Assembly (NCBI GenBank): GCA_036273715.1
Contig: DASUHB010000035.1
Location: 1 to 37,454, forward strand
Direction of reading: 5' to 3'
Length of the DNA stretch: 37,454 nucleotides
Origin: Gemmatimonadaceae bacterium
GTDB lineage: Bacteria > Gemmatimonadota > Gemmatimonadetes > Gemmatimonadales > Gemmatimonadaceae
Positions 14,517 through 27,940 of this stretch are shown here, one piece after another. Numbering within the stretch: position 1 is the stretch's first letter; every line of letters begins with the position of its first letter. Below the pieces are notes generated by a model. It searched no databases. It was not told the origin of the DNA and worked only from the letters and a program-made list of their open reading frames with translations. The translations under genes and the position numbers were made by a program.

Positions 14517-16319
14517 TTAGACCGTTGGGACGTACGCGTTGTCGAGCTCCTGCGCCTCGCCGGTCTGGAACTGCCAGAGACGCCGGTAGGTGTCGCACGT
14601 GCTGAGCAGCATCTCGTGCGAATCGAGCCCCATCAGGCGGCCGCGATCGAGCACCATGATGCGATCCGCCGCGCGCAGCGTGGAGAGGCGGTGTGCCACG
14701 ACGAACGTCGTGCGCCCTTCCATCAAGCGCTCGAGCGCCTCCTGCACGCGTCGCTCGGATACGGAGTCGAGGCTGCTCGTTGCTTCATCCAGGAAGAGCA
14801 ACGGCGCGTTCTTGAGCAACGCGGCAGCAATGCAGATGCGTTGCTTTTGTCCCGTCGAAACGCCTCGGGCGTCGCGCCTCCGACCAACAATGGTGTCATA
14901 GCCGCGCTCCATCCGCATGATCTCGTCATGCACGTTGGCCGCGCGTGCCGCAGCCTCGACCTCTTCCATCGTGGCTGTGGGCCGCCCAATGCGAATGTTG
15001 TTCGCGACCGTGTCGAGAAACAGAAACGGCTCCTGCATTACGATGGCGCAGCGATCCATCAAGTCCTTGTAGCGAATCAGCCGGAGATCGACGCCATCCA
15101 CGAGAATGCGTCCCGATGCCGGATCGTAGAAGCGCAAGAGCAAGGACACCAACGTCGACTTGCCCGATCCGGAAGCTCCCACGATTCCGATCGTCTCACC
15201 ACGCTTGAACGTCGCCGACACCCCCTGCAGCACGAGCGCCTCACCGTACGCAAAAGAGACGTCCTGTAGCTCGATCTCTGCCGGCGCATCGAGCAGGGGC
15301 TGCGCCTCGCGCGCATCGCGCACGTCCGATTCCGTGGAGAGAATCGCAGCGACGCGGCCGAGGTGCGGGAGGTACTGGCGAACGGTGTTGTAGACGCCAA
15401 GCAAGTCGACGATCGGCGAGTACACGGCCATGATCGCGATGAGAAGGCTGAGCAGCGATTGCCACGACAGATGATTGAGTGCGACGTCACGGCCGCCGAT
15501 GATGAGCACCGCGACCAGTCCCAAACCGGACACCGCTTCGACCAACAAACGCGCAAGGTTCTTCGCGCCGTTCTGTCGCACGACGAACCGGTAGAGATCG
15601 TGTCCAATAATGCGCGCGCGCTCGAGCACCCGCGGTTCAGCGCGGTTCACCTTGATGACGCGGAACCCGGAAGCAACCTGGAAGAAGCTGTCGAACAGCG
15701 TGCTCACCGTGAGCCGCTCACTTTCGGATGCGCGGGTGATGTGCTGTCCGAAGTAGTACGCCGGGACGAGGCCTGCCGGCAGCGTGATCAGTCCAACGAT
15801 CGCCAACTTAGGACTGATCACCCAGCAAACGACCGCCAGGCCCGCAAGTCGCGACAGCGAGAGCACGATCGTTCCGAGCGCCAAGGTCACCTGCCTGATG
15901 CCCTTCACGTCTTCGTACGTCGACAACACCATCTCGCCCTGGCTGTTGCGTTCGATGCTCCGAACGGAGAGCGTCATGAACTTGGCGAGCACACTCTGCA
16001 TCTCACCGATCTCGACGTGGTGTGCGAGCCGAACCGACGCTTGCTGGCCGAGATACGTCGTGAACACGCGAAGCAGCCAGATGCCGAAGATTGCGATCGC
16101 ACCCCACACGAGGGTGCCGGCATCCCGGTGCATCTCGTTGCTGAACAGCAACAGCACCTTCCGCAGTGCCCACACGAGCATTCCCTGAAGGAACCCCTGC
16201 GACAGGGTCGCGATGAGCAGCATGATGCTGAGCAGCGGATGCCGCCGCATGGCGCGGACGCCTAACATTAGCGCCCGGCGCACGGTGTACTCGCGGGCGT
16301 GCTGCAGAAGCTCCGTCAT
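14517..16319 (-). CDS. ABC exporter (MsbA/PglK-like half transporter)
   Basis: A 600-residue fused permease/ATPase. The N-terminal ~330 residues hold about six membrane helices of the type-IV exporter fold. The ATPase domain has Walker A GASGSGKSTL (near residue 383), a signature read as VSTGQKQR (near 486) instead of the common LSGGQ, Walker B LLFLDEATSSLD (near 508) and the H-loop VVAHRLS (near 540). It would work as a homodimer in the inner membrane. As no Wzx flippase is seen and PglC/D/E-type genes are in the locus, a PglK-like role flipping a lipid-linked oligosaccharide is an attractive inference; lipid A-type or other export is possible. The ATG at 16319 is set by an ATGA overlap; the longer frame upstream is rejected. 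Confidence 0.88.
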   Translation of the reverse strand: MTELLQHAREYTVRRALMLGVRAMRRHPLLSIMLLIATLSQGFLQGMLVWALRKVLLLFSNEMHRDAGTLVWGAIAIFGIWLLRVFTTYLGQQASVRLAHHVEIGEMQSVLAKFMTLSVRSIERNSQGEMVLSTYEDVKGIRQVTLALGTIVLSLSRLAGLAVVCWVISPKLAIVGLITLPAGLVPAYYFGQHITRASESERLTVSTLFDSFFQVASGFRVIKVNRAEPRVLERARIIGHDLYRFVVRQNGAKNLARLLVEAVSGLGLVAVLIIGGRDVALNHLSWQSLLSLLIAIMAVYSPIVDLLGVYNTVRQYLPHLGRVAAILSTESDVRDAREAQPLLDAPAEIELQDVSFAYGEALVLQGVSATFKRGETIGIVGASGSGKSTLVSLLLRFYDPASGRILVDGVDLRLIRYKDLMDRCAIVMQEPFLFLDTVANNIRIGRPTATMEEVEAAARAANVHDEIMRMERGYDTIVGRRRDARGVSTGQKQRICIAAALLKNAPLLFLDEATSSLDSVSERRVQEALERLMEGRTTFVVAHRLSTLRAADRIMVLDRGRLMGLDSHEMLLSTCDTYRRLWQFQTGEAQELDNAYVPTV

Positions 16320-18547
16320 CGGTCGGCGGGCCGATGGGAGGCCATCGGGCTCGCCGTGCTCGCGGCCGGCACGGGGCCCAACCGCAGAATCCCGCGGCGC
16401 TCGAGCTCGGCGATCGTACCGCGTGCGGCTTCGAGAGAAATGCCGCACTCCTTCGCGATCTGCCTCACAGTTCTGGTGCCATCGACAAGAAAAAGAATGT
16501 CGAACAACGCCTTGTTGCCTTCCGGGTTCGTGTAGAAATCGATGTGCGCGCCGAATCGCGAGCAGAACACTTCGCCCTTGTACAGGTTCACGGGGACGCA
16601 CTCCGCTTCGAGCGCATCGATCATGCGCAGCACCAGATCTCGGGAAGCTTCCAGGCTCTCGCGCCGGGCGAGCGCGGGCGTGTCGTTGCTCGAGTGATAG
16701 CCGCGATACGGCCACTCCGGTGACTCGGGGCGCACCACACGAGAGAGCGACAACATCGGGGCGCGTACACCGGGCGCGTTGTACTGGCGCTCGTCGTTTC
16801 CGATGACGGTACGGAACGCACCCGTCCATCCCTGCGGGTCGGCTGCACGCAGCGCCTCACCGAACACCTCATCGAGCGGCGTATTGCCGGCAAACGATAG
16901 CTGCAGTGCGTGCGGATGCTCGAGCCCGAGCATCTCGAGAAAGAGGCCGCCGGTTAGGCGCGGAATGAGATGTTCGTTCCGACTCAGGTACGCGACGGAT
17001 CCGATGGTCTCGGGGACGATCGTGAAGCGGTAGGTATAGTGAAGGTCCCGCCGCGCGAGCAGCGCGCGCATGACATCAATCCCGACCACGACGCCGCTGA
17101 GATCGTCGTTCACCATGTGCGGATGACACAAGTGCGCGCACAGCATGACGATTTCGTCGCTCGAGCCGCGCGCGACCACTTCGCCGACCTTCAACGTGTC
17201 GAACGCGAAGGTGGTGCGAATAACAACCCGATACTCGTCGTCGTGCAGCGAGTCGCGAAGGGTCTTGCTGCAGCACAGTCCCCAATCGCGCTCGTAGTAC
17301 TTGAAGATGAACGGAATCGCATCCGGCTGCTTCTCATCGACGTGCAAGTGGGCAAGCAGCGTCTCTCGCGAGACGACTCCATCGAACGGCAGCGAGTACG
17401 ACACCACGTGCAACGGATGATCGGCGTACGAAAACAGCCGCTGGCCATCGACGGTTTCGAGATACGCCTCGTGGCAGGTCCACCTCTCGGGCACGATCCA
17501 GCTCCAGCATTCGCTGCCTGCCGGATATTCGTGCACCGCCATCGGCACTTGCCGGGCGAGCGCGGCCAGCGCGGCGTCGTAGCCGTCGGAGACGATGTCG
17601 CGCGGCAAACGCCAGAGGCCGTCGATCATCTCGGTCATGGACGCGTTGGCGCCTAACGAAACCGGGAAGCGCCTCGGCGGCACGCGCCGGCGTTCCATCT
17701 CGATCGGATCCGCCGCCGGTCCGCGCGCGGTGAACCAGGGATCACGCCGCAACTCGCGCGCGATCAAATCGTACAGCGGCGCGCAGGCGGCCGTGCGCAC
17801 CGCGTCACGCCCAACGGGCGCGAGCGTGCAGATGCCTGCCGCGCGAGCCGCGGCTTCGAGGCGAGTGAGGTGCGGTTCGCTCTCGTCCCCGAGGATACGA
17901 ACGTTGAACACCCATCCCGTTTTCCGCTCCCGTCCCTGCTCGCGGACGACGCCGGTGAAGAGTTTCCGGAAGCGGAATGGCACGCCTACCGACTCCTCGA
18001 CGAAGTGCTGAAAGCTGGCTTCGCTCAACCCGACGCCGATCGTGCACACCTTGCCGTTCGCGGCACGCAGGCGATCGAAGACGCTGCCCGGACCGAAGCA
18101 CGTCGGCGGCACGTCGCCCAGGATGGCGGCGGCGAGCGGACCACACCCGGCCACCGAATGAATGGGGTCGCCCGACCGGACGGTCCCGGCGCGCCGACGA
18201 AAATACTCGAGAAACGGACCGAACGTGCTCCAGGGTCCGCCTTCCGTCGGCGTGTGTTCGATGTCGAACGGCTGCTGGCGGCAGAACGAGAACGTATAGG
18301 TTGGAACGAGCAGCGTGCCCGTCGGACCAAGCACGTCGTCGAACGCGCGCATGAGCATCGCGCTCGTCTCGTCATCGGTCGCGCAGCCGTACGGGCTGCC
18401 TAACGCATCGAGACCGATGTGGGCAAAGATGAGGTCGCCTGATTCGATTCCAGATGCGCGCAGCGCGTGGACCAGATCGGCCTGCGTGTAGTCGCTCGCG
18501 CCGGTCAACGGGGGGCGAATCGGAGCGGACAAGGTGGTTTCCGTCAT
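16316..18547 (-). CDS. Fusion: AAC(3)-like N-acyltransferase + DUF4910-like aminopeptidase + winged helix
   Basis: A 743-residue fusion. Residues about 20-270 match the aminoglycoside 3-N-acetyltransferase fold: ESGDLIFAHIGLDALG, GPTGTLLVPTYTFSF, GDPIHSVAG (His130 where the conserved His lies) and HFVEESVGVPFR. Residues about 310-660 match the DUF4910/DUF2172 group, an M28-like zinc aminopeptidase fold, with WSWIVPERWTCHEAYLE, LHVVSYSLPF, AHLCHPHMVNDDLSG (His472, His475, Asp481/482), VPETIGSVAYLS (Glu513) and GYHSSND (His618). Residues about 675-725 form a helix-turn-helix-like tail. In glycan loci AAC(3)-like proteins acylate amino sugars, and the second domain might remove an acyl or aminoacyl group; both are inference. 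ATGA overlaps on both ends fix the start at 18547. Confidence 0.82.
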   Translation of the reverse strand: MTETTLSAPIRPPLTGASDYTQADLVHALRASGIESGDLIFAHIGLDALGSPYGCATDDETSAMLMRAFDDVLGPTGTLLVPTYTFSFCRQQPFDIEHTPTEGGPWSTFGPFLEYFRRRAGTVRSGDPIHSVAGCGPLAAAILGDVPPTCFGPGSVFDRLRAANGKVCTIGVGLSEASFQHFVEESVGVPFRFRKLFTGVVREQGRERKTGWVFNVRILGDESEPHLTRLEAAARAAGICTLAPVGRDAVRTAACAPLYDLIARELRRDPWFTARGPAADPIEMERRRVPPRRFPVSLGANASMTEMIDGLWRLPRDIVSDGYDAALAALARQVPMAVHEYPAGSECWSWIVPERWTCHEAYLETVDGQRLFSYADHPLHVVSYSLPFDGVVSRETLLAHLHVDEKQPDAIPFIFKYYERDWGLCCSKTLRDSLHDDEYRVVIRTTFAFDTLKVGEVVARGSSDEIVMLCAHLCHPHMVNDDLSGVVVGIDVMRALLARRDLHYTYRFTIVPETIGSVAYLSRNEHLIPRLTGGLFLEMLGLEHPHALQLSFAGNTPLDEVFGEALRAADPQGWTGAFRTVIGNDERQYNAPGVRAPMLSLSRVVRPESPEWPYRGYHSSNDTPALARRESLEASRDLVLRMIDALEAECVPVNLYKGEVFCSRFGAHIDFYTNPEGNKALFDILFLVDGTRTVRQIAKECGISLEAARGTIAELERRGILRLGPVPAASTASPMASHRPADR

Positions 18548-19329
18548 GCGTCGACAGGGGTCGGCGTTGCAGCAAGGGCGAGCAGCCGGCCCGACTGCGC
18601 GACCGTCTGCGGAACAATGTACTGCGCATTCGACCGCGAGAGCTCGGCGTCCTGTTCGGCCTGTCGAACGAGGTCTTCCATCGTGAACGAAGCGCCGTGC
18701 GATGGATACAGGGTCTCGATGAGGTGCCGGATGAGTGCGTAGTCCTCGGCGTAATCGAGCGTCCAGCGATGATGCAGATAGAGATTTGCCGGGTGCTCGA
18801 GGTTGTGGACGCGAAGTCCGGCGTCCCAGAAGTACGGAATCACGTGCTCGCGCTGCTGCTGCGTCATCGCCTCGCGCCACGCGCGCGCGAGGGCGTGGGA
18901 CGGGATGACGTCCAGGTCGAGTCCGTCCGGGAACGTGAGGGGGTGCCGATTGGTCACGAGATCGGCCTCGCCATCGTGGTCGAGCGCATAGCGGACCATT
19001 GCATCCACGATCATCGGATCCACGAGCGGACAGTCGGCGGTGACGCGCACGACCAGGTCGGCGCCTGCGAGAACGGACGCGCGATAGTACCGATCGAGGA
19101 CATCGCTCTCGCTCCCACGAAACGTGTCGACGCCTAACGATTCGCAGCAGGCCACGATCGGATCGTCGCGGCGGTCGCCCGATGTCGCGACCACGATGCG
19201 ATCGACGGTTCGAGACCTGCCCAGACGCTCGAGGAGGTGCGCAAGCAGTGGACGGCCGGCCGCCGGCATGAGGACCTTGCCGGGCAAACGCGTCGACCCC
19301 ATCCGCGCCTGTACGATCGCCGCGATCAT
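18544..19329 (-). CDS. spsF: Cytidylyltransferase, SpsF type (CMP-sugar synthetase family)
   Basis: A 261-residue GT-A-like nucleotidyltransferase beginning MIAAIVQARMGSTRLPGKVL, the hallmark of SpsF and the wider CMP-KDO/CMP-neuraminate synthetase group. VVRVTADCPLVDP (near 98) supplies the metal-binding Asp residues, and LTFPDGLDLDVI is the usual substrate loop. With a NeuB-type synthase in the same operon (26888-27940), the likely job is CTP activation of a nonulosonic acid. The ATG at 19329 overlaps the aminotransferase stop by ATGA, which removes the upstream extension of the frame. Substrate identity is inferred from context only. Confidence 0.87.
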   Translation of the reverse strand: MIAAIVQARMGSTRLPGKVLMPAAGRPLLAHLLERLGRSRTVDRIVVATSGDRRDDPIVACCESLGVDTFRGSESDVLDRYYRASVLAGADLVVRVTADCPLVDPMIVDAMVRYALDHDGEADLVTNRHPLTFPDGLDLDVIPSHALARAWREAMTQQQREHVIPYFWDAGLRVHNLEHPANLYLHHRWTLDYAEDYALIRHLIETLYPSHGASFTMEDLVRQAEQDAELSRSNAQYIVPQTVAQSGRLLALAATPTPVDA

Positions 19330-20783
19330 ACCGCGCCTTCGGGACCGGTGCAGCACGCGAGCTGCGGCGCATCCGGATGCAAGCGGCCGCAACGAGTTTG
19401 ACAGCATCGATTGAACGTCCGGAACACCGGCTTCACGGCGTCGCCGAGGAACGACGTTTCGACGTTGTCCTCGTCGATGGCGCGGCGCACCTTGCGCATG
19501 CCGTGTTGCAGCGCTTCGAGCGTGCGTGCGATTTCCTCATCGCCGTGCGAGTACGTGATCGTGATCCATGGAACGAGCACGCCCCACGAGATCACTTCCT
19601 CATGGAACGAGGTGTGCAGCGCAGGCCACGGCGAGCCATCGGCGCGGGTACAAATGATCTGCGGATTGCAGTCGAAGCCGATCACGCGCACGTGATCGGA
19701 CACGCCTTCTGCCGCGGCGAGGTCGCGAACGCCCTTGACGAGCTTTGCGCCGAGCGACCAGATGTGATCGCCGACGTTCTTACGCTGATACTCCTCGAGC
19801 GTTGCGCGACACGCCGCGAGGCCGACGGTTTCCGAGGTGTGTGTCTGCGAGAGGAGGAACACGCGGCGGGTGTCGTGGCGCAGACCGCCTAACTCCATGA
19901 TGTCCCGGCGGCCGGCCAGACACGAAAACGAGTATCCGTTGCTCATTGCCTTACCGTAGCAAGCCAGATCCGGATACACCTTCCATCGATGGTGCGCGCC
20001 GCGCAGGTCGAACTTGAGTCCGCTGATCATCTCGTCGAAGATCAGCACCGTGCCTTCCCGGCGCGTCAGGTCGCGCAGCGCCTGCAGAAAGTTGTCGCGC
20101 GGCTCGTCGTTCTTCACCGGTTCCAGGATCACGGCAGCGATCTGCCCGGGATACTGTGCGTACAGCGTCTCGAGGCTCGCGATGTCGTTGTATCGGAAGC
20201 TCACGGTGAGCGCCGACACTTCGTCGGGCACACCGGCATTCGTCGGCGTCGTGCCGATGAACCAGTCGTGAATGCTGAAGAACGGATGCTCGCGGCACAC
20301 GGCCACGATTTTTCGGTTGGTGTACGCACGTGCGAGCTTGATGGCCGCCGTCGTGACGTCGGAACCGTTCTTCCCGAACTTTACCATCTCGGCAACCGGC
20401 AGCAGATCGACGAGATATTCGGCCAGCTCGTACTCCAGCAGGCCGGGGCGCGTGAAGTTCACGCCTAACTCGATCTGGCGGCGTACCGCCTCGTTCACCG
20501 CCGGATAGGCGTGGCCGAGGACCATGACGCGATTGCCCATGGCCCAGTCGACGAATCGATTGCCGTCGACGTCCCAGCAGTACGCACCTTGGGCGCGCGC
20601 AATCAGCTTGGGCGACCGCGCGGGAAACTGATCGTCTCCTTTGCTGTAGGTATGCGTCGCCGCGGGCACGATGTCGTGAAAGTGCTCGTTGAGCTCCTCG
20701 CTCCTGGCGAAGTTGCGAACGGGGCCGGTCGGCGCGGGAGGCGTCGCGGCGTGGAGGCGAATATCGGTAGCAGCGTCAGTCAT
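19326..20783 (-). CDS. Class III PLP aminotransferase, HemL (glutamate-1-semialdehyde aminomutase)-like
   Basis: A 485-residue fold-type I aminotransferase. The N-terminal HTYSKGDDQFP and WDVDGNRFVDWAMGN segments and the FGKNGSDVTTAAIKLARAYT PLP-phosphate region are typical of glutamate-1-semialdehyde aminomutase-like enzymes. VLIFDEMISGL gives the PLP-ring Asp, and YGKAMSNGYS holds the Schiff-base Lys near residue 277. It is longer than HemL (about 430) owing to a C-terminal tail of some 35 residues with five Cys in RCCQTRCGR and LACC. Its position between the nitrilase and cytidylyltransferase genes, coupled to both by ATGA overlaps, argues for sugar or acyl-side-chain amination rather than tetrapyrrole synthesis. 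The substrate is not known. Confidence 0.85.
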   Translation of the reverse strand: MTDAATDIRLHAATPPAPTGPVRNFARSEELNEHFHDIVPAATHTYSKGDDQFPARSPKLIARAQGAYCWDVDGNRFVDWAMGNRVMVLGHAYPAVNEAVRRQIELGVNFTRPGLLEYELAEYLVDLLPVAEMVKFGKNGSDVTTAAIKLARAYTNRKIVAVCREHPFFSIHDWFIGTTPTNAGVPDEVSALTVSFRYNDIASLETLYAQYPGQIAAVILEPVKNDEPRDNFLQALRDLTRREGTVLIFDEMISGLKFDLRGAHHRWKVYPDLACYGKAMSNGYSFSCLAGRRDIMELGGLRHDTRRVFLLSQTHTSETVGLAACRATLEEYQRKNVGDHIWSLGAKLVKGVRDLAAAEGVSDHVRVIGFDCNPQIICTRADGSPWPALHTSFHEEVISWGVLVPWITITYSHGDEEIARTLEALQHGMRKVRRAIDEDNVETSFLGDAVKPVFRTFNRCCQTRCGRLHPDAPQLACCTGPEGAV

Positions 20784-21610
20784 TGCCGGTTGGCGAGTTG
20801 AGCGGGCGTGCCGTACACGTCGGAACGGCGATCGCCCAAGAGATCCATCTGCGCACGCGCATGCGTCACGCGGGAAAAGTCGAGTGTCGCGAACAACAGG
20901 TCTTCCTTCTCGCCGCCTTCGACGATCGGCTGGCCTAACGGATCCACGATCATGGAGTGGCCCGCGAACTCGGTGCTGCCGGACGTGCCTGCGCGATTGC
21001 AGGCGATGATGAACAGTTGATTTTCGATGGCGCGTGCCCGCACCAGCGTGCGCCAATGCTCCACACGAACGGCCGGCCATTCAGCGGGCAGAATGACCAG
21101 GTGCGCGCCCTCGAGAGCATATAGTCGGAACAGCTCCGGAAAGCGCAGGTCATAGCAGATCGCGGCGCCGGCCGTGCACTGCGGCAATGCGAAGGTGACG
21201 GATGCATCGCCGGCCGACAGATAGTGCGGCTCATCCATGAGGCCGAACAAATGCACTTTGGCGTACTCGGCGATGAGCGATCCGTCGGGGCCATGAACGG
21301 TGAGCGTGTTGCGAACGCGACCCAGCTCATCGGACAGCAGGAGCGACCCGGCGATGAACAGTCGATGGTGCTGCGCCAGACGCGCGATTTCGGGCAGGAC
21401 CGATGCGCGGTTTTCGTGCGACAGCGCGGACGCATGCTCGAGGTCATAACCGGTCGACCACAACTCGGGCAGAAGCACGAGCTCGGCGCCGACACTGCTC
21501 GCCGCGCGCACCTGCGCCGCGGTGCAATCGACGTTTGCCCGGATGTGGCCTAACCGGACGTCGGACTGGACGACGGCGACGCGGAGCGCGCGCTGGGTGG
21601 CGTCGGACAT
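20780..21610 (-). CDS. Carbon-nitrogen hydrolase (nitrilase superfamily, omega-amidase-like)
   Basis: A 276-residue protein with a complete Glu-Lys-Cys triad: Glu49 in LLPELWS, Lys118 in YAKVHLFG and Cys152 in ICYDLRFPELFR. The layout and length match omega-amidase/Nit2-like cytoplasmic amidases, which hydrolyse terminal amides such as alpha-ketoglutaramate. The start at ATG 21610 follows a GAGG at good spacing, eight bases after the methyltransferase stop. Its stop overlaps the HemL-like aminotransferase by ATGA. In this context it may remove ammonia from an amide formed during amino-sugar or side-chain synthesis, or recycle the glutamine-derived amide; this is inference. Confidence 0.87.
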   Translation of the reverse strand: MSDATQRALRVAVVQSDVRLGHIRANVDCTAAQVRAASSVGAELVLLPELWSTGYDLEHASALSHENRASVLPEIARLAQHHRLFIAGSLLLSDELGRVRNTLTVHGPDGSLIAEYAKVHLFGLMDEPHYLSAGDASVTFALPQCTAGAAICYDLRFPELFRLYALEGAHLVILPAEWPAVRVEHWRTLVRARAIENQLFIIACNRAGTSGSTEFAGHSMIVDPLGQPIVEGGEKEDLLFATLDFSRVTHARAQMDLLGDRRSDVYGTPAQLANRQ

Positions 21611-21618
21611 CGGACGCC

Positions 21619-22380
21619 TCACTCGCCCATGCGCGCCGCGACGAACATCCACGGCAGGTACACCGGCCCGGTGAACTGCATGCGGCGGCCGCTCTGCATC
21701 GTCTGCGTGAAGGTGCCCAGACCGCCCGAGTCGGGCCGGGGCAAATCGATGTCGATGTCGAACGGCTGCGCGCGGAACTCGCGACATCCGTGCATCTCGC
21801 AGAACGCGCGAATGCGGCGCAGGCTGTAGACGTTGATGTGATACGGCGGCAATTCGGGAACGACGGCGTGGTCGTACACGAGGCACTCGGTATCCACGTC
21901 GGCCTCGGCGAAGAGTGCGCTCAACACCAGCCATCCACCGGGCTTCGTCGCGCCGAGCAACTGGGCAAGCGCGCGTTCGTGGTCGGGGAGCCAGGAGAGC
22001 GTCTGCAAGAGCATCACGAGATCGTACGACCGGCCGCCTAACGCTTGATCGAGATCGAACAGGTCGCCGGTGACGAGGGACACATCGAGCCCGGCCTCGG
22101 CGAAGTGTTCGCGGGCGACGGGGAACAGCATGTCGCCGGCAAGATCGAGTCCCGTCCACCGGAAACCGCGGAGTGAGCGGCTGAGATACATGATGTTCGC
22201 GCCGGCGCCGCACGCGACGTCCAGCGCGTCGCCGCCCCGCAAGGAAAGCCGCGACAGGAACGTGTCCAGGTGCACCGTGCTGCGATACGGGCGATCGAAC
22301 TGCCGCGTGTGATACGCGAGCTGGCTTTCGTCGGTCCAGAGCTTCTTTTCGTCTTCGCTGATGCGGGTTTCGGTTTCCAT
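21619..22380 (-). CDS. Class I SAM-dependent methyltransferase
   Basis: A 253-residue Rossmann-fold methyltransferase. Motif I is LDVACGAGANI (residues 53-63), an acidic residue after beta-2 lies in GLDLAGDML, and motif IV-like LVMLLQTLSWLPDHERAL precedes the KPGGWLVLSALF strand. The C-terminal ~90 residues, ending with FVAARMGE, are of the small-molecule methyltransferase type. It starts two bases after the aminotransferase stop and has GAGGAGGGC as ribosome site. It probably methylates a sugar, nucleotide sugar or acyl side chain made by this operon; the target cannot be named. Confidence 0.85.
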   Translation of the reverse strand: METETRISEDEKKLWTDESQLAYHTRQFDRPYRSTVHLDTFLSRLSLRGGDALDVACGAGANIMYLSRSLRGFRWTGLDLAGDMLFPVAREHFAEAGLDVSLVTGDLFDLDQALGGRSYDLVMLLQTLSWLPDHERALAQLLGATKPGGWLVLSALFAEADVDTECLVYDHAVVPELPPYHINVYSLRRIRAFCEMHGCREFRAQPFDIDIDLPRPDSGGLGTFTQTMQSGRRMQFTGPVYLPWMFVAARMGE

Positions 22381-22382
22381 GG

Positions 22383-23597
22383 TCAGCCCTCCTCGCGAGC
22401 GGCGATGACCGCGTCGATGACGCGGGTCTGCTGCTCTGACTGAAGCCCAACCGAGCACGGCAGGCTCAACGCCTGTCCGTGCAGCCGCTCGCTGACCGGA
22501 CATCCGAGCGCCGGCGTCATGCCCCGGTACGGCTTCGACTGATGGATGGGCTGCCACAGCGGTCGCGTCTGGATCTTTCGTTCGCCGAGGCGGCGCATGA
22601 GCGCACGGGCGTCCATCCCGAATTCCACGGCATCGACGAGCACCGTGTACAACCACCACGCGCTCTGCGCCCATGGTGCCTGGCGCATCACCGTAAGGCC
22701 CGGGACATCCGACAGGGCGGCCGCGTAGCGGTCGGCGATGCGCCGCTTGGCCGCGAGGTAGTCGTCGAGCTGCTCCATCTGCGCCACGCCCATCGCCGCC
22801 TGGATGTTCGTGAGGCGATAGTTGTAGCCCACGGCGCCGTGCTCGAACTCGATCGGATCGTCCTTGGCTTGCGTGGTCAGGTACTTCGCGCGGCGTGCCC
22901 AATGTTCGCGATCGGTTACGAGCATCCCGCCGCCGCCGGTGGTGATGAGCTTGTTGCCGTTGAAACTGAAGCAAGCAACGTCGCCCATGTGACCAACCGG
23001 GGTGCCGCGATAGCGGGCGCCCAGACTTTCGGTTGCATCTTCGATGACGATCAGGTCATACCGGCGCGCGAGATCGAGCAGCGGCGCCATGTCGACCGGG
23101 TGCCCCATCACGTGCACGGGCAGAAGCGCGCGCACGCGGCGATCGGTGGCCCGGTCGTAGAGCGCGTTGCCGCGACGCTCACATTTCGTTTCGAGGAACC
23201 GCGCGACGACCGCCGAGTCCATCTGCCAATAGTCAGGCTCGGCGTCGATGAACACGGGCCACGCGCCCACATAGCGGATGGCGTTGACCGGCGCGATGAA
23301 CGTCAGCGTCGACACGAGCACTTCGTCATCCGCTTCGACGCCGGCGACCATCAGGGCGGTGTGCAACGCGGACGTGCCGCTGGATGTCGCGACCGCGTAC
23401 TGGGCGCCGGTCGCGTTCGCGAGTGCGCGCTCGAAGCGATCGACATATTCGCCGACCGACGACACCCAGTTCGTGTCGAGGCACTCCTTGATGTACGCCC
23501 ACTCGTTGCCGCGAATTTCCGGCACGCAGAGCGGAATCGGAGACGCCACGGCCGGCGCCGGCTCCGCGAACGGAGCCTCGTGCGCGAGGGTGCTCAT
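22383..23597 (-). CDS. DegT/DnrJ/EryC1/StrS aminotransferase (LegC-like)
   Basis: A 404-residue PLP-dependent sugar aminotransferase. ATSSGTSALHTAL binds the PLP phosphate, VIEDATESLGARYRG gives the PLP-ring Asp, and SFNGNKLITTGGGGM holds the Schiff-base Lys near residue 215. GYNYRLTNIQAAMG and QTRPLWQPIH complete the family pattern. Such enzymes convert a 4-keto nucleotide sugar to the 4-amino sugar with glutamate. Its place beside a PtmE-type nucleotidyltransferase, an SDR and a NeuB synthase suggests a LegC-like step toward a diamino nonulosonic acid. The ATG at 23597 shares a base with the SDR stop (TGATG). A second, related DegT protein lies at 35295-36464. Confidence 0.9.
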   Translation of the reverse strand: MSTLAHEAPFAEPAPAVASPIPLCVPEIRGNEWAYIKECLDTNWVSSVGEYVDRFERALANATGAQYAVATSSGTSALHTALMVAGVEADDEVLVSTLTFIAPVNAIRYVGAWPVFIDAEPDYWQMDSAVVARFLETKCERRGNALYDRATDRRVRALLPVHVMGHPVDMAPLLDLARRYDLIVIEDATESLGARYRGTPVGHMGDVACFSFNGNKLITTGGGGMLVTDREHWARRAKYLTTQAKDDPIEFEHGAVGYNYRLTNIQAAMGVAQMEQLDDYLAAKRRIADRYAAALSDVPGLTVMRQAPWAQSAWWLYTVLVDAVEFGMDARALMRRLGERKIQTRPLWQPIHQSKPYRGMTPALGCPVSERLHGQALSLPCSVGLQSEQQTRVIDAVIAAREEG

Positions 23598-24562
23598 CAG
23601 TTGCGGTAGCTGGGGTGCGACGCGTCTCCGACGACACCGTCCCGCACCAGGCGGGCGACTTCGCGGATCCCGTCGTCGAGCGTGCGCGAGACCTCGAAGC
23701 CCAGCGTCTTGTTGATGCGCGCGAACGAGACGCGATAGTCGCGCGGGTCTTCGGTCCGCTTGACGAACTCGACCACTGCGTTAGGCGCGATCGGCCGGAT
23801 GTGGTCGACGATCTGTTGCTTCTGATAGTTCTCTTTCGTGGCGCCGACGTTGAAGACCTGGCCGCGCACCTGCGGCTCCGGCGCTTGCAGTACCGCCACG
23901 ATGGCGCGCGCCGCATCGCGGACGTGGACATACGGCCGCCAGAACTGCTCGCCGAAGACGACCAGCTTGTCGCGCAGCACCATCTCCATCGTGAATTCGT
24001 TCACCGTGAGGTCGAAGCGCATGCGGGGCGACACGCCGAAGACGGTGGCGAACCGCAGCGGCGTCATCGCCGTCGCGCCGATGCCGTCTTCCAGCATCGC
24101 TCGTTCGACGCCGACCTTGGTTTCGGCATAGAGCGACACGGGCCGCAAGTCCGACGACTCGTCGACGTATCCATCGGATTCGGCCATCTTGCCGTAGTTG
24201 CTGCACGTAGAGGCGAAGAGGAACCGGGCGACGCCGGCGCGGCGCGCGGCGTCGAGCAGCGAGAGCGACGCGGAGAGATTGACATCGCGCGCGACATCGG
24301 GCTGTCTGGCGCACGCCGGGTCGCCGACGATGGCGGCCAGGTGCACGACGGCCTCGATCCCGGACACGGCTTGCCTAACGGATGGCTCGTCACGGACATC
24401 GCCGCGCACAAACTCGAAGCGCGGGTGGGTCCACACGGGCAGCAGCGCCTGTCCGCCGTGCAGCAGACTGTCCAGCACGCGCACCGAGTGTCCGGCTGCG
24501 AGCAGCTCGGGCACCAACGTCGATCCAACGTATCCTGCACCACCGGTCACCAGAACCTTCAT
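23597..24562 (-). CDS. Nucleotide-sugar epimerase/dehydratase (extended SDR)
   Basis: A 321-residue extended SDR. The NAD motif TGGAGYVGST is at residues 6-15, STCSNYG at 118-124 supplies the Ser/Thr, and YAETK gives Tyr145 and Lys149. FGVSPRMRFDLTVNEF and FWRPYVHVRD are typical of NDP-sugar epimerases and reductases. In the cassette it sits between the nucleotidyltransferase and the aminotransferase, where a 4,6-dehydratase (LegB-like) is needed. The motif set looks as much like an epimerase as a dehydratase, so the reaction is left open. The start codon shares one base with the upstream stop (TAATG), implying coupling. Confidence 0.88.
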   Translation of the reverse strand: MKVLVTGGAGYVGSTLVPELLAAGHSVRVLDSLLHGGQALLPVWTHPRFEFVRGDVRDEPSVRQAVSGIEAVVHLAAIVGDPACARQPDVARDVNLSASLSLLDAARRAGVARFLFASTCSNYGKMAESDGYVDESSDLRPVSLYAETKVGVERAMLEDGIGATAMTPLRFATVFGVSPRMRFDLTVNEFTMEMVLRDKLVVFGEQFWRPYVHVRDAARAIVAVLQAPEPQVRGQVFNVGATKENYQKQQIVDHIRPIAPNAVVEFVKRTEDPRDYRVSFARINKTLGFEVSRTLDDGIREVARLVRDGVVGDASHPSYRN

Positions 24563-25755
24563 TACGCCCTCACCTGGAGTACGTCGTGCTGCGCTCGCTC
24601 GTAGTCGGCCGGCTTCCCGATGTCCAACCAGTATTCCACCACCGGGAACGCGACCACCTTGCGGCCCTCGGCGAGCAATTTTTGAATGAGATCCGTCATG
24701 TCGAAGCGCTCCCCCTCGGGGATGTACGCGACGGCAGCGGGGTCGAGCAGATACATCCCGGCATTGACGAGGAACTGCTGCACCGGCTTTTCGCGCAGCG
24801 CGGAAACGGACACGCCGGAGCAGTCGATCACACCGTACGGCACCTCGAGATCGAATTTGCGCACGCCGACGGTGGCGATCGCGCCGTTCTCACGGTGGTA
24901 GGCCAGCATGTCCTGGTAATTCACGCCGGTGAGGATGTCGCCGTTGACGACGAGGAGCGGGCCGGTCGGCGGCTCCATGAGGCGCAGCGCGCCGGCGGTG
25001 CCTAACGGACGATCCTCGGTGACGTACCGCATCTCGACGCCGAACTCGCGGCCGTCGCCGAAGTGGTCCGTGATCTTGTCGCTCAAATAGTGCGTCGCCA
25101 CGTTCACGCGACGGATGCCCGCGTGGCGCAGGCGCTCGATCGTGCGCTCCATGAGCGGGCGATCGCCGATGGGAAGGAGCGGCTTGGGCGTGTCGGTCGT
25201 GAGCGGCATCAGGCGCTTGCCGAAGCCGCCGGCCATGATGACGGCGGTGAACGTGTCGTCGGCGCCGACGAGATCGCGCCGCAGGACCAGGCCGACCACG
25301 ATGCCGTCGTCCGTTAGGACGGGCAGGTGCTCGACCGTGTCGTCGCGGGAGCGGCCCATGAGATCGAGCAGCTCCGACGCCGTCATCCCGCGGCTCGCGA
25401 CGCGGGGGTGGCGAGAGGCAATGCTCTCACAGGATACGGTGAGCGGTGCGCCGGACAGGATGTGGCGGCGCACATCGCCGTCCGTGATCACGCCGATGAG
25501 ACGGCGGTCCGCGTTGGCCAGCATCAACACGCCCATGCCGTTCGCATCGAGAATCCTGAGCGCCTCCGACAGCGGAGTGCTCGGCGGGACGATCGCCTCC
25601 CTGAGCCGTTGCTGCATGCGATCGTCGGAAATCATGCGCACGTTTTCCGGTGGAGAGATAATGGACGAGGTCGCCAATGCCTGGAGCATTATTAGGAATC
25701 TCTCATCTTCTGAGCAAGAGGCATCCCCAACCGGGATCGGATCGGTCTGGGTCAT
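24562..25755 (-). CDS. CBS-pair nucleotidyltransferase (PtmE-like sugar-1-phosphate nucleotidyltransferase)
   Basis: A 397-residue protein. Residues about 45-165 are two CBS domains (GVLMLANADRRLIGVITDGDVRRH and VGLVLRRDLVG mark them). From about 165 the GT-A-like nucleotidyltransferase domain follows with IMAGGFGKRL and TPKPLLPIGDRPLMER. This order is that of PtmE, the GlcN-1-phosphate guanylyltransferase of the Campylobacter GDP-linked legionaminic acid route, so a GDP-amino-sugar role is inferred. The first ~40 residues (from the ATG at 25755) are unlike the family and less GC-rich; an internal ATG at 25635 could be the true start. The 176 bases upstream are non-coding and may hold a promoter. 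Confidence 0.85.
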   Translation of the reverse strand: MTQTDPIPVGDASCSEDERFLIMLQALATSSIISPPENVRMISDDRMQQRLREAIVPPSTPLSEALRILDANGMGVLMLANADRRLIGVITDGDVRRHILSGAPLTVSCESIASRHPRVASRGMTASELLDLMGRSRDDTVEHLPVLTDDGIVVGLVLRRDLVGADDTFTAVIMAGGFGKRLMPLTTDTPKPLLPIGDRPLMERTIERLRHAGIRRVNVATHYLSDKITDHFGDGREFGVEMRYVTEDRPLGTAGALRLMEPPTGPLLVVNGDILTGVNYQDMLAYHRENGAIATVGVRKFDLEVPYGVIDCSGVSVSALREKPVQQFLVNAGMYLLDPAAVAYIPEGERFDMTDLIQKLLAEGRKVVAFPVVEYWLDIGKPADYERAQHDVLQVRA

Positions 25756-25931: not shown

Positions 25932-26891
25932 CTACCGTGGCGGCCGTGCAACGGGCGGGGCGTCCTCGCACACGCAACGATGTTGCGAGAGGCGCGTTCC
26001 GATTCGCCAGGTTGGCTGCTCTCGTCCGGTTTGGCCTTCGATCGACTGGACGAGGATGGTCGAGTCGCCGGTTTTCACGAGGGCGCCGCCCGGCTGGCGG
26101 CCGACGACCTGACCTGGTGTGGCGACGTAGTTAGGCCAGGATGGGTCATAAAACGCTCGCCACACAATCACGGGTGTGCGATCGAGCATCGTTCGCGCGC
26201 CGGGGCCGGGCTCGGAGATCGCGCGGATGAAATTATGGATCGTGCGGCTCGACGCGTTCCAATCAATCCATTCATCGCCTTCTCGGCGGCCGCCAAAGTA
26301 GGTGCCCGGGTGATCGGCTTGACGTCGGCGCTGTGCTGTGCCGTTGGCGATCTCGCGCACCGTGTCGACGACCAGGGACGGCAGTCGCTCGACGACGCGG
26401 CGCAGCACATCGCCGTAGCCATCGGTCCATCCGATCGGCAGCGTGACTTGCATGATGATGTCGCCCGTATCGATGCCGTCGTCCACGTAGTGTCCCGTTA
26501 GGCCAATCTCCGTCTCGCCGTTGATGATCGCCCAGTTGATGATGTTGCGGCCGCGATAGAACGGGAGCTTGCCGGCGTGGAAGTTGATCACGCCGAGCGC
26601 GTGCGCCTCGCGGATGGGGGCGCGCAGGATCTGGTTGCAGGCCACCGAGATGCCGAGGTCGGGCTGGAGCGCTGCGATTTGACGAACCACATCCGGCGCA
26701 TTGATCCTGGCCGGTTGCAGCACCGGCACGCGCAGCCGCGCCGCGGCGTCGCCTAACGACGCATCACTCGGCGATTGGCGGAGAACGGCGACGACGATGC
26801 GGTGCCCCGCATCGGTCAGGCGGGCGAGCGTGTCGGCGGCCCACTGGCCGTCGCCGTACATGGCGATGCGCAGGCCGCCGGACGCGGTCAT
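25932..26891 (-). CDS. Sugar N-formyltransferase (formyl-THF dependent)
   Basis: A 319-residue protein with the methionyl-tRNA/sugar formyltransferase fold. The Asn-His-Asp catalytic set is visible: Asn in SVACNQIL (near 86), His in NFHAGKLPFYRG (near 104) and Asp in VDDGIDTGDII (near 140). The C-terminal ~100 residues look like the small beta domain found after the catalytic domain. Sugar formyltransferases move a formyl group from N10-formyltetrahydrofolate to an amino sugar. As it directly follows the NeuB gene (ATGA overlap) and precedes the amino-sugar genes, it likely makes an N-formyl nonulosonate or its precursor. The TTG at 26906 is rejected in favour of ATG 26891. A housekeeping Fmt role is unlikely here. 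Confidence 0.88.
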   Translation of the reverse strand: MTASGGLRIAMYGDGQWAADTLARLTDAGHRIVVAVLRQSPSDASLGDAAARLRVPVLQPARINAPDVVRQIAALQPDLGISVACNQILRAPIREAHALGVINFHAGKLPFYRGRNIINWAIINGETEIGLTGHYVDDGIDTGDIIMQVTLPIGWTDGYGDVLRRVVERLPSLVVDTVREIANGTAQRRRQADHPGTYFGGRREGDEWIDWNASSRTIHNFIRAISEPGPGARTMLDRTPVIVWRAFYDPSWPNYVATPGQVVGRQPGGALVKTGDSTILVQSIEGQTGREQPTWRIGTRLSQHRCVCEDAPPVARPPR

Positions 26892-27940
26892 GCGAGGTCC
26901 GACCAATCGAGCTCATCTTCGGCGCGCACGTCGCGCGTGATGGCGCGTCCGACGACGTAGCGCAGCTCGTCGGGTTGGATGCCGGTGCCGGGGCGCTTGA
27001 AGTCGACGTCGGCGGCGGCGAGGCGGTCGCCCTTGCACATGTCGCGGCGCGCGACCATGCGCCGGCGGAAGACCTTGCGTTTTGCGATCTCGTCGGCGCT
27101 CACGCGGCGGGCGGCGCTGCCTAACGCAGCAAACGCGTCGCGCGCGCCGTCGACGATCGCACGCAGCTCGGCCGGGTCCGCCGAGATGGCGTGGTCCCAG
27201 CCCGGGAGGTTCTTGTCGGTGGTGAAGTGCTTCTCGATCATGCACGCGCCTAACGCAACCGCCGCGATCGGGACGGCGGAGCCGAGCGTGTGGTCGCTAT
27301 AGCCCACCGGGACGTCGAAGGCCGCGCGCCACGTGTCCATCGTGCGCAGGTTCACCTGCGCCGGAGGCGACGGATAGATCGACAGGCAATGGAGAATCGC
27401 AACCGGCCCGGAGCCGGCCGCGCGCAGCGTGCCGATCGCACGCTCCACTTCGCCTAACGTCGCCATGCCGGCCGAGAGGATCACCGGCTTGTGCGTGGCG
27501 GCGACGTACTCGAGGAGCGGCAGGTGGTTCACGTCCATCGACGCGATCTTGTAGGCCGGGACATCGAGCGATTCCAGCATGTCGACTTCGGCGTTCGAGA
27601 AGCAGCTGGAGAAGAACACGACACCGGTCTTGCGGCAGTACGCCGAGATTTCTTCGTGCTGGGCGCGCGACAGCTGGTATTGGTCGACGGATTCTTCCAG
27701 CGTCGGCTGGTTGCGCTGCTTGCTCACGTACGCGGTGTTGCGGTCGTATTCGGCGCGCGAGATGAGGGACGACTTGCTCCACGACTGGAACTTGACGGCG
27801 TCGGCGCCGCATTCGCGCGCGGCGTCGATCATCGCACGGCAGAGCGTCATGTCGCCGTTGTGGTTGGCGCCGATCTCAGCGACGATATAGGGCGGCTCGC
27901 CGGGACCGACTGAGCGGCCGGCGATGTTCAACTTATCCAT
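26888..27940 (-). CDS. neuB: Nonulosonic acid synthase (NeuB/SpsE/LegI family)
   Basis: A 350-residue protein of the sialic acid synthase family, which condenses phosphoenolpyruvate with a C6 amino sugar to make a nine-carbon acid. IVAEIGANHNGDM (residues 19-31) opens the TIM barrel, ADAVKFQSW lies near 45-53, VGYSDHTLG near 215 and MIEKHFTTDK near 235. The C-terminal ~60 residues (RRMVARRDMCKGDRLAAADV and on) are the antifreeze-like SAF domain. Length is normal. The ATG at 27940 has GAGG just upstream and overlaps the glycosyltransferase stop by 13 bases. Which acid (neuraminic, legionaminic or other) cannot be decided; the LegC/PtmA/PtmE-like neighbours favour a legionaminic-like product. 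Confidence 0.92.
   Translation of the reverse strand: MDKLNIAGRSVGPGEPPYIVAEIGANHNGDMTLCRAMIDAARECGADAVKFQSWSKSSLISRAEYDRNTAYVSKQRNQPTLEESVDQYQLSRAQHEEISAYCRKTGVVFFSSCFSNAEVDMLESLDVPAYKIASMDVNHLPLLEYVAATHKPVILSAGMATLGEVERAIGTLRAAGSGPVAILHCLSIYPSPPAQVNLRTMDTWRAAFDVPVGYSDHTLGSAVPIAAVALGACMIEKHFTTDKNLPGWDHAISADPAELRAIVDGARDAFAALGSAARRVSADEIAKRKVFRRRMVARRDMCKGDRLAAADVDFKRPGTGIQPDELRYVVGRAITRDVRAEDELDWSDLA

What the first reader, a model, noticed from the sequence alone, without database searches (positions are those of the whole stretch)
16316..18547. Three-part fusion: AAC(3)-like acyltransferase, DUF4910-like aminopeptidase and winged helix in a glycan operon
One 743-residue protein combines an antibiotic-acetyltransferase-like domain with a zinc-peptidase-like domain with apparent ligands (His472/475, Asp481/482, Glu513, His618) and a DNA-binding-like tail. 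An acylating and a de-acylating activity in one chain suggests editing of an amino-sugar side chain, or aminoacyl decoration and trimming. The gene is coupled by ATGA overlaps to the CMP-sugar synthetase and the exporter, so it acts between activation and export.
Basis: partly seen in the sequence, partly recalled or inferred. Interest (0 to 1): 0.68.

Follow-up and report, generated by a model that had tools for sequence, protein, structure and literature searches.

The report
Fused acyl-swapping enzyme for sialic-acid-like sugars
One bacterial gene joins an enzyme that adds acyl groups to amines to a metal-site enzyme that probably removes or moves them, and because the same two genes sit side by side in many bacteria's sialic-acid-like sugar clusters, the pair most likely swaps a side chain on that surface sugar.

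Summary
A 743-residue ORF on the minus strand (18547..16316) joins an Antibiotic_NAT/AAC(3)-like domain to a DUF4910 domain (with inserted DUF2172) and a permuted winged helix. It lies in a nonulosonate operon (NeuB, LegC, LegB-like, cytidylyltransferase). It is no artefact: four congeners carry it, it recurs in several phyla, and it arose at least twice. The unfused pair is adjacent in many genomes (AAC directly upstream of DUF4910 in 46 of 103 loci). Published annotation puts the same pair in Campylobacter jejuni (Cj1295 beside Cj1296/7).

Both sites look live here: AAC dyad H181/E184, and metal-site positions H475, D481, E513, E538, H618. The M28 catalytic Glu is Pro512, so this is not an ordinary aminopeptidase. 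The tail matches a module that makes trimer contacts in 3k9t, not a DNA binder.

Most likely mechanism: N-acyl exchange on a nonulosonate, probably at C5 (inferred; a C5 swap was hypothesised for Cj1295 in 2010 and sugar transacylation for DUF4910 in 2014). Against strict coupling: three fused homologues lost the AAC His, and Cj1295 worked with Cj1296/7 recorded out of frame. Known parts, under-described pairing: a new variant of a known kind.

The parts
16316..18547 (-). AAC(3)-DUF4910-wHTH fusion gene, 743 aa
17717..18499 (-). Antibiotic_NAT / AAC(3)-like acyltransferase domain, residues about 17-277
   Evidence: Pfam PF02522 E 2.4e-30; AAC(3) structures Z 25-27
17996..18016 (-). AAC catalytic motif S178-F-Q-H181-F-V-E184 (family motif TxPhiHPhiAE)
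   Evidence: motif from PMC8956665; H in 73/76 and E in 75/76 homologues
16601..17644 (-). DUF4910 M28-like metal-hydrolase-fold domain, residues 302-649
   Evidence: PF16254 E 4e-59; 3k9t Z 44.5
17210..17482 (-). DUF2172 insert (lid-like, protease-associated-domain derivative), residues 356-446
   Evidence: PF09940 E 1.3e-28; PMC4000134
17105..17125 (-). metal motif H475-P-H477-M-V-N-D481 (H475 and D481 ligands; H477 stands where M28 has its Asp)
   Evidence: H475 105/105, D481 96/105; alignment to 3k9t and M28 2ek8
17009..17014 (-). P512-E513: M28 general-base Glu replaced by Pro; E513 at a metal-ligand position
   Evidence: P 102/105, E 93/105
16934..16936 (-). E538 in FLEMLG, at the fifth M28 metal-ligand position (LDMVG in 2ek8)
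16694..16696 (-). H618 metal ligand
   Evidence: 103/103; = H324 of 3k9t
16373..16600 (-). C-terminal permuted winged helix, residues about 650-725
   Evidence: 3k9t alignment extends to model residue 724; weak MarR_2
18544..19329 (-). SpsF/KdsB-like CMP-sugar synthetase (CTP_transf_3), ATGA-coupled to the fusion
19326..20783 (-). class-III aminotransferase of the PRK06209 family
   Evidence: 566 bits, over cut-off 486
20780..21610 (-). carbon-nitrogen hydrolase
21619..22380 (-). SAM methyltransferase
22383..23597 (-). LegC-family aminotransferase
   Evidence: TIGR04181, 465 bits over cut-off 420
23597..24562 (-). NAD-dependent epimerase/dehydratase, LegB-like
24562..25755 (-). CBS-nucleotidyltransferase (PtmE-like)
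25932..26906 (-). sugar formyltransferase
26888..27940 (-). NeuB nonulosonate synthase with SAF domain
14517..16319 (-). MsbA-type ABC transporter, ATGA-coupled downstream

Best explanation
The protein is a bifunctional N-acyl-exchange enzyme of nonulosonate (Leg/Pse-type) sugar biosynthesis. In the model, the DUF4910 domain, with its metal site of H475, D481, E513, E538 and H618, removes or activates the N-acyl group that the sugar carries from GlcNAc (probably at C5, possibly C7, of the free or CMP-linked nonulosonate). The AAC(3)-like domain then puts a different acyl group from an acyl thioester on the freed amine, using the H181/E184 dyad. The DUF2172 lid and the C-terminal winged helix serve for substrate access and oligomerisation, not DNA binding. 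Shown here by sequence and structure prediction: the fold of each part, conservation of both active sites in the close family, the nonulosonate context, and the recurrent adjacency and fusion. Inferred: deacylation as the DUF4910 reaction, the C5 position, the order of steps, and the nature of the new acyl group.
For: AAC and DUF4910 are partners. In 298 Gemmatimonadota genomes 7 of 19 strong DUF4910 genes have an AAC-family gene within about 3 kb, against about 0.005 expected by my hand estimate; in a wider but biased set AAC is fused in 17 and directly upstream in 46 of 103 loci. The DUF4910 tree needs 3 changes of state for fusion, at least 2 forced by starred branches, and fused clades sit beside or among split ones. 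The window's genome has one copy of each family, both in this gene. AAC His/Glu dyad in 73/76 and 75/76 homologues; H475 105/105, D481 96/105, H618 103/103; all five M28 ligand positions are H-D-E-E-H in 79 of 105, including every fused protein that is complete there. Experimental anchor: the DUF4910 gene Cj1295 is required for the C5 2,3-di-O-methylglyceroyl form of Pse, and its authors proposed acetamido cleavage and replacement (PMC3068675); its neighbour Cj1296/Cj1297 is annotated as an AAC(3) family acetyltransferase (PMC3025981, PMC5135748). Agrobacterium pDG3-1a carries a full pse set including pseH plus AAC(3) and DUF4910, and Occallatibacter (L034) carries a PglD-like acyltransferase next to the fusion, so the pair is extra to the ordinary C7 acylation. 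General pathway knowledge: the C5 nitrogen comes acetylated from GlcNAc, so a different C5 acyl needs removal and replacement.
Against: No activity has been measured for any DUF4910 protein in what I could read. The M28 general base is Pro512 and the M28 Asp is H477, so classical hydrolysis is doubtful unless another residue (for example invariant E586) takes over. Three of 17 fused homologues (L026, L029, L034) have lost the AAC His, so in them the AAC domain is either inactive or works otherwise. In C. jejuni NCTC 11168 the acyl change depended on Cj1295 while Cj1296/7 was recorded as out of frame (PMC3068675 Table 1). Many DUF4910 genes have no AAC gene nearby (28 of 103, some on short contigs; all of one Gemmatimonadota clade). 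The substrate is not identified, and no coordinates were available to measure the distance between the two sites.
Confidence: 0.5

Rival explanations
1. Additive acylation without removal: the AAC domain acylates the new 4-amino (future C7) group made by LegC, standing in for LegH/PseH, while the DUF4910 domain transfers a second acyl or amino-acyl group by itself.
For: No LegH or PseH gene was seen in the window, and none is annotated in the Tritonibacter pse cluster. Das et al. proposed transacylation for DUF4910 (PMC4000134). Cj1295 alone suffices for the acyl change with Cj1296/7 out of frame.
Against: The window has a sugar formyltransferase that can serve the C7 amine. pDG3-1a has pseH as well as the AAC gene; Occallatibacter has a PglD-like enzyme.
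Confidence: 0.28
2. The AAC domain has become a binding or scaffold domain for the sugar or for an acyl carrier, and DUF4910 is the only enzyme.
For: The catalytic His is lost in three fused homologues while the DUF4910 site stays intact in all.
Against: The His/Glu dyad is intact in the window, its closest relatives and 73 of 76 AAC homologues.
Confidence: 0.12
3. A true aminopeptidase or protein-processing enzyme with a DNA-binding regulatory tail.
For: M28 fold (Z 25-30 to M28 aminopeptidases); five ligand positions filled.
Against: M28 catalytic Glu is Pro in 102/105; no target protein in the operons; the Cj1295 mutant changes the glycan, not the peptide (PMC3068675); the wHTH is permuted and mediates trimer contacts in 3k9t (PMC4000134).
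Confidence: 0.05
4. An aminoglycoside resistance gene fused by chance.
For: Weak hits to resistance AAC(3) models.
Against: Scores far below every resistance cut-off (64.9 bits against 270); conserved glycan context; recurrent fusion.
Confidence: 0.02

Closest known systems
CA_C2195 / PDB 3k9t (DUF4910 + DUF2172 + HTH_47), Clostridium acetobutylicum
   Same: Same three C-terminal parts in the same order; three Zn ligands correspond; nonulosonate (spsE/spsF) context
   Different: No AAC domain; only three of five M28 ligand positions retained according to its authors (one Zn seen); Ser191 where the window has H477
Cj1295 with Cj1296/Cj1297, Campylobacter jejuni flagellin glycosylation locus
   Same: DUF4910/DUF2172 protein beside an AAC(3)-family acyltransferase in a nonulosonate locus; Cj1295 is needed for a C5 N-acyl change
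   Different: Two separate phase-variable genes, DUF4910 first; pseudaminic-acid flagellin pathway; sequences not compared here
FrbF, BA2930, YokD and AAC(3) enzymes (Antibiotic_NAT family)
   Same: Fold and His/Glu catalytic dyad
   Different: Single-domain; FrbF acts in phosphonate antibiotic synthesis, AAC(3) enzymes on aminoglycosides; none is fused to DUF4910
Tritonibacter mobilis p4 and Agrobacterium salinitolerans pDG3-1a pse clusters
   Same: Annotated DUF4910 and AAC(3) genes inside pseudaminic-acid clusters
   Different: Split genes; different DUF4910 subclass (N481/E482, T or S at 538)

Membership tests
Antibiotic_NAT (PF02522) | profile score over curated cut-off | tested here: met
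   106.3 bits against 25
Antibiotic_NAT (PF02522) | TxPhiHPhiAE motif with His/Glu dyad | tested here: met
   S178-F-Q-H181-F-V-E184; His and Glu present, Thr replaced by Ser, Ala by Val
Antibiotic_NAT (PF02522) | fold of solved AAC(3)/FrbF structures | tested here: met
   Z 24.8-27.3 over about 240-250 residues
AAC(3) aminoglycoside resistance enzymes (NCBIfam) | score over curated cut-off of a resistance model | tested here: not met
   64.9 bits against 270 at best
DUF4910 / DUF2172 (3k9t family) | profile scores over cut-off, with DUF2172 inserted in DUF4910 | tested here: met
   199.9 against 26.6; 99.7 against 27
DUF4910 / DUF2172 (3k9t family) | Zn triad H189/D195/H324 | tested here: met
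   H475, D481, H618
DUF4910 / DUF2172 (3k9t family) | C-terminal permuted winged helix | tested here: met
   3k9t chain 16-434 aligned to model 302-724; Pfam HTH_47 gave no hit
Peptidase M28 | five metal ligands | tested here: met
   H475, D481, E513, E538, H618 by alignment to 2ek8 and 3k9t; Glu instead of Asp at 538; binding not shown
Peptidase M28 | catalytic Glu and the Asp two residues after the first His | tested here: not met
   P512 and H477 (PMC4000134)
N-acyl-exchange enzyme on nonulosonates | measured de- and re-acylation of the sugar | not testable with these tools
   no assay possible

The most novel reading that the evidence does not exclude
A single polypeptide that swaps the C5 N-acyl group of a nonulosonate: an M28-fold metal site without the M28 general base deacylates, and an Antibiotic_NAT site re-acylates, a two-step editing route fused independently in at least two lineages and present as the split Cj1295/Cj1296-7 pair in Campylobacter.
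Probability: 0.42. Interest if true: 0.62.

Novelty: new variant of a known kind. Interest (0 to 1): 0.45.

Why it matters
How bacteria install unusual N-acyl groups on sialic-acid-like sugars is largely unassigned: the papers read here still call the glyceroyl gene in Tannerella elusive (PMC6120980) and the Cj1295 mechanism a hypothesis. A natural fusion puts both suspected activities in one protein whose substrate class is known, so the 2010 and 2014 hypotheses become directly testable. It also explains why genes annotated as 'AAC(3) family N-acetyltransferase' and 'response to antibiotic' sit in glycan clusters: they are probably glycan acyltransferases, not resistance genes.

Tried and rejected
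Frameshift or assembly artefact: rejected, since the fusion recurs in congeners and other phyla. Resistance gene: rejected. DNA-binding regulator: rejected from the 3k9t precedent (PMC4000134). AAC as a general stand-in for PseH/LegH: weakened by pDG3-1a and Occallatibacter. 'of' with locus ids is not accepted, so an even survey outside Gemmatimonadota was not possible. Phage collection: one AAC-only hit. Literature searches for nonulosonate deacetylation or re-acylation gave nothing further. The link between acidic residues at 513/538 and an AAC gene in the locus (Fisher p 0.0017) is confounded by clade and is not used as independent evidence.
Full report
WHAT IS THERE. The minus-strand ORF 18547..16316 encodes 743 residues. 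Pfam finds Antibiotic_NAT (62-263), DUF4910 (306-648) with DUF2172 inserted at 356-446, and a weak MarR_2 match in the tail. The best PDB sequence match is 3k9t (E 3e-55), then AAC(3) enzymes and FrbF. The AlphaFold2 model is confident throughout except for the ends (pLDDT 91.8, pTM 0.88). VIA-align matches 3k9t over 302-724 at Z 44.5 and AAC(3) structures over about 15-277 at Z 25-27. ATGA overlaps join it to the cytidylyltransferase before it and the ABC transporter after it.

CONTEXT. Upstream on the same strand are NeuB, a sugar formyltransferase, a CBS-nucleotidyltransferase, a LegB-like dehydratase, LegC, a methyltransferase, a carbon-nitrogen hydrolase, a PRK06209 aminotransferase and a KdsB/SpsF-like cytidylyltransferase. 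This is a legionaminate-type nonulosonate operon inside a larger surface-polysaccharide cluster (Wzc, Wza, Wzy, pyruvyltransferase, glycosyltransferases). No hydrolysing 2-epimerase (Epimerase_2) was found in the window; the genome's only match is on another contig. The window's genome has exactly one PF16254 and one PF02522 match, both in this gene.

ACTIVE SITES. The AAC domain keeps the family's His/Glu dyad as H181 and E184 in the motif SFQHFVE (motif from PMC8956665); across homologues the His is 73/76 and the Glu 75/76. In DUF4910, H475 is 105/105, D481 96/105 and H618 103/103; these are the Zn ligands H189, D195 and H324 of 3k9t. Alignment of a DUF4910 profile to the M28 aminopeptidase 2ek8 puts E513 and E538 on the two other M28 ligand positions. 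The set H-D-E-E-H occurs in 79 of 105 homologues, including 16 fused proteins (the 17th is cut off before E538), whereas two other subclasses lack one or two of these. Das et al. described only three ligands retained in 3k9t. The M28 general-base Glu is Pro512 (102/105 Pro), and the position of the M28 Asp is variable (H477 here). The domain is therefore M28-like in its metal site but not in its acid-base residue; the invariant D585, E586, R603 and D622 are candidates for a different chemistry (inference).

HOW COMMON, AND IS IT CHANCE. A degenerate-pattern scan of 84,980 species genomes kept 80 loci. Classified with plasmid and Gemmatimonadota loci, 103 DUF4910 loci divide into 17 fused, 46 with AAC directly upstream, 1 directly downstream, 11 with AAC elsewhere in the locus and 28 without, some of these on short contigs. 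That set is biased because it was seeded on the fusion. In an even sample of 298 Gemmatimonadota genomes there are 19 strong DUF4910 genes and 49 AAC-family places; 7 of the 19 have AAC within about 3 kb, 3 of them fused, where about 0.005 would be expected by chance (hand estimate: 0.16 AAC per genome, 6 kb of 3.9 Mb, 19 genes). Fused or directly adjacent pairs with at least 4.5 kb on both sides have a NeuB nearby in 25 of 33 loci. The tree of 102 DUF4910 domains needs three changes of the fused state, at least two forced by starred branches: one clade across Gemmatimonadota, Acidobacteriota, Sumerlaeota, Myxococcota and Verrucomicrobiota, next to Chloroflexota with AAC directly upstream, and one clade of four Anaerolineales among split relatives (quick tree, long branches flagged).

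SPLIT VERSIONS IN NAMED RECORDS. Tritonibacter mobilis p4 reads pseB-pseC-hypothetical-DUF4910-AAC(3)-FlmD-ATP-grasp-oxidoreductase-pseI-TPR-pseF. Agrobacterium salinitolerans pDG3-1a has pseB, C, F, G, I and H plus AAC(3) and DUF4910 parted by an IS3 element. In Campylobacter jejuni, Cj1295 is a DUF2172 / putative M28 protein (PMC6321876) and its neighbour Cj1296/Cj1297 is annotated as aminoglycoside N3'-acetyltransferase or AAC(3) family (PMC3025981, PMC5135748). I did not have the Campylobacter sequences to test this myself.

MECHANISM. Hitchen et al. showed that Cj1295 is required for pseudaminic acid carrying a 2,3-di-O-methylglyceroyl group on the C5 nitrogen and proposed that it cleaves the C5 acetamido group so that it can be replaced (PMC3068675). 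Das et al. proposed transacylation on a sugar from the 3k9t neighbourhood and mentioned gene fusions without naming them in the main text (PMC4000134). The fusion fits both: the C5 nitrogen arrives acetylated from GlcNAc, so a new C5 acyl group needs removal and replacement (pathway knowledge). The presence of a separate C7 acyltransferase beside the pair in pDG3-1a (pseH) and Occallatibacter (PglD-like), and of a formyltransferase in the window, suggests the pair does something extra. I therefore favour N-acyl exchange at about 0.5. Two facts limit it: three fused homologues lost the AAC His while keeping the DUF4910 site, and Cj1295 acted while Cj1296/7 was recorded out of frame. DUF4910 is thus the constant part and AAC the optional one.

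Gene order does not place the step between activation and export: in the orthologous cluster L022 a second cytidylyltransferase-HAD gene and a second NeuB intervene before the ABC gene. The tail is unlikely to bind DNA. H472 and D482 are not ligand positions, and E538 was missed.

NOVELTY. Each domain, the glycan context and the acyl-swap idea are published. What appears new is the identified AAC(3)-DUF4910 partnership with repeated fusion, the five-position metal site of this subclass, and loss of the AAC His in some fusions. The supplementary tables of PMC4000134 could not be read here, so I cannot exclude that this fusion is listed there.

Noticed in passing
L046:7589-10753: In a Zixiibacteriota genome LuxE- and LuxC-family genes lie directly upstream of the AAC-DUF4910 pair, which hints at a dedicated acyl-activation step for the acyl donor.
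   Followed up: no
L026, L029, L034: Three fused proteins have Q, T or D in place of the AAC catalytic His.
   Followed up: partly
L137-L145 and others: A Gemmatimonadota DUF4910 subclade without any AAC gene has Gly or Ala at position 513 and Asn at 482; a pse-type subclade has Asn481/Glu482: three metal-site subclasses of DUF4910.
   Followed up: partly
window 19326-21610: A PRK06209-family aminotransferase and a carbon-nitrogen hydrolase sit beside the cytidylyltransferase; among the surveyed loci this trio recurs only in the close Gemmatimonadaceae clusters L022 and L023. Role in the sugar unknown.
   Followed up: no
window 1-37454: No NeuC/LegG-type Epimerase_2 found in a cluster that has NeuB; the genome's single copy is on contig C44.
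   Followed up: partly
L062 and L084: Two Chloroflexi loci carry two DUF4910 ORFs in tandem downstream of one AAC gene.
   Followed up: no
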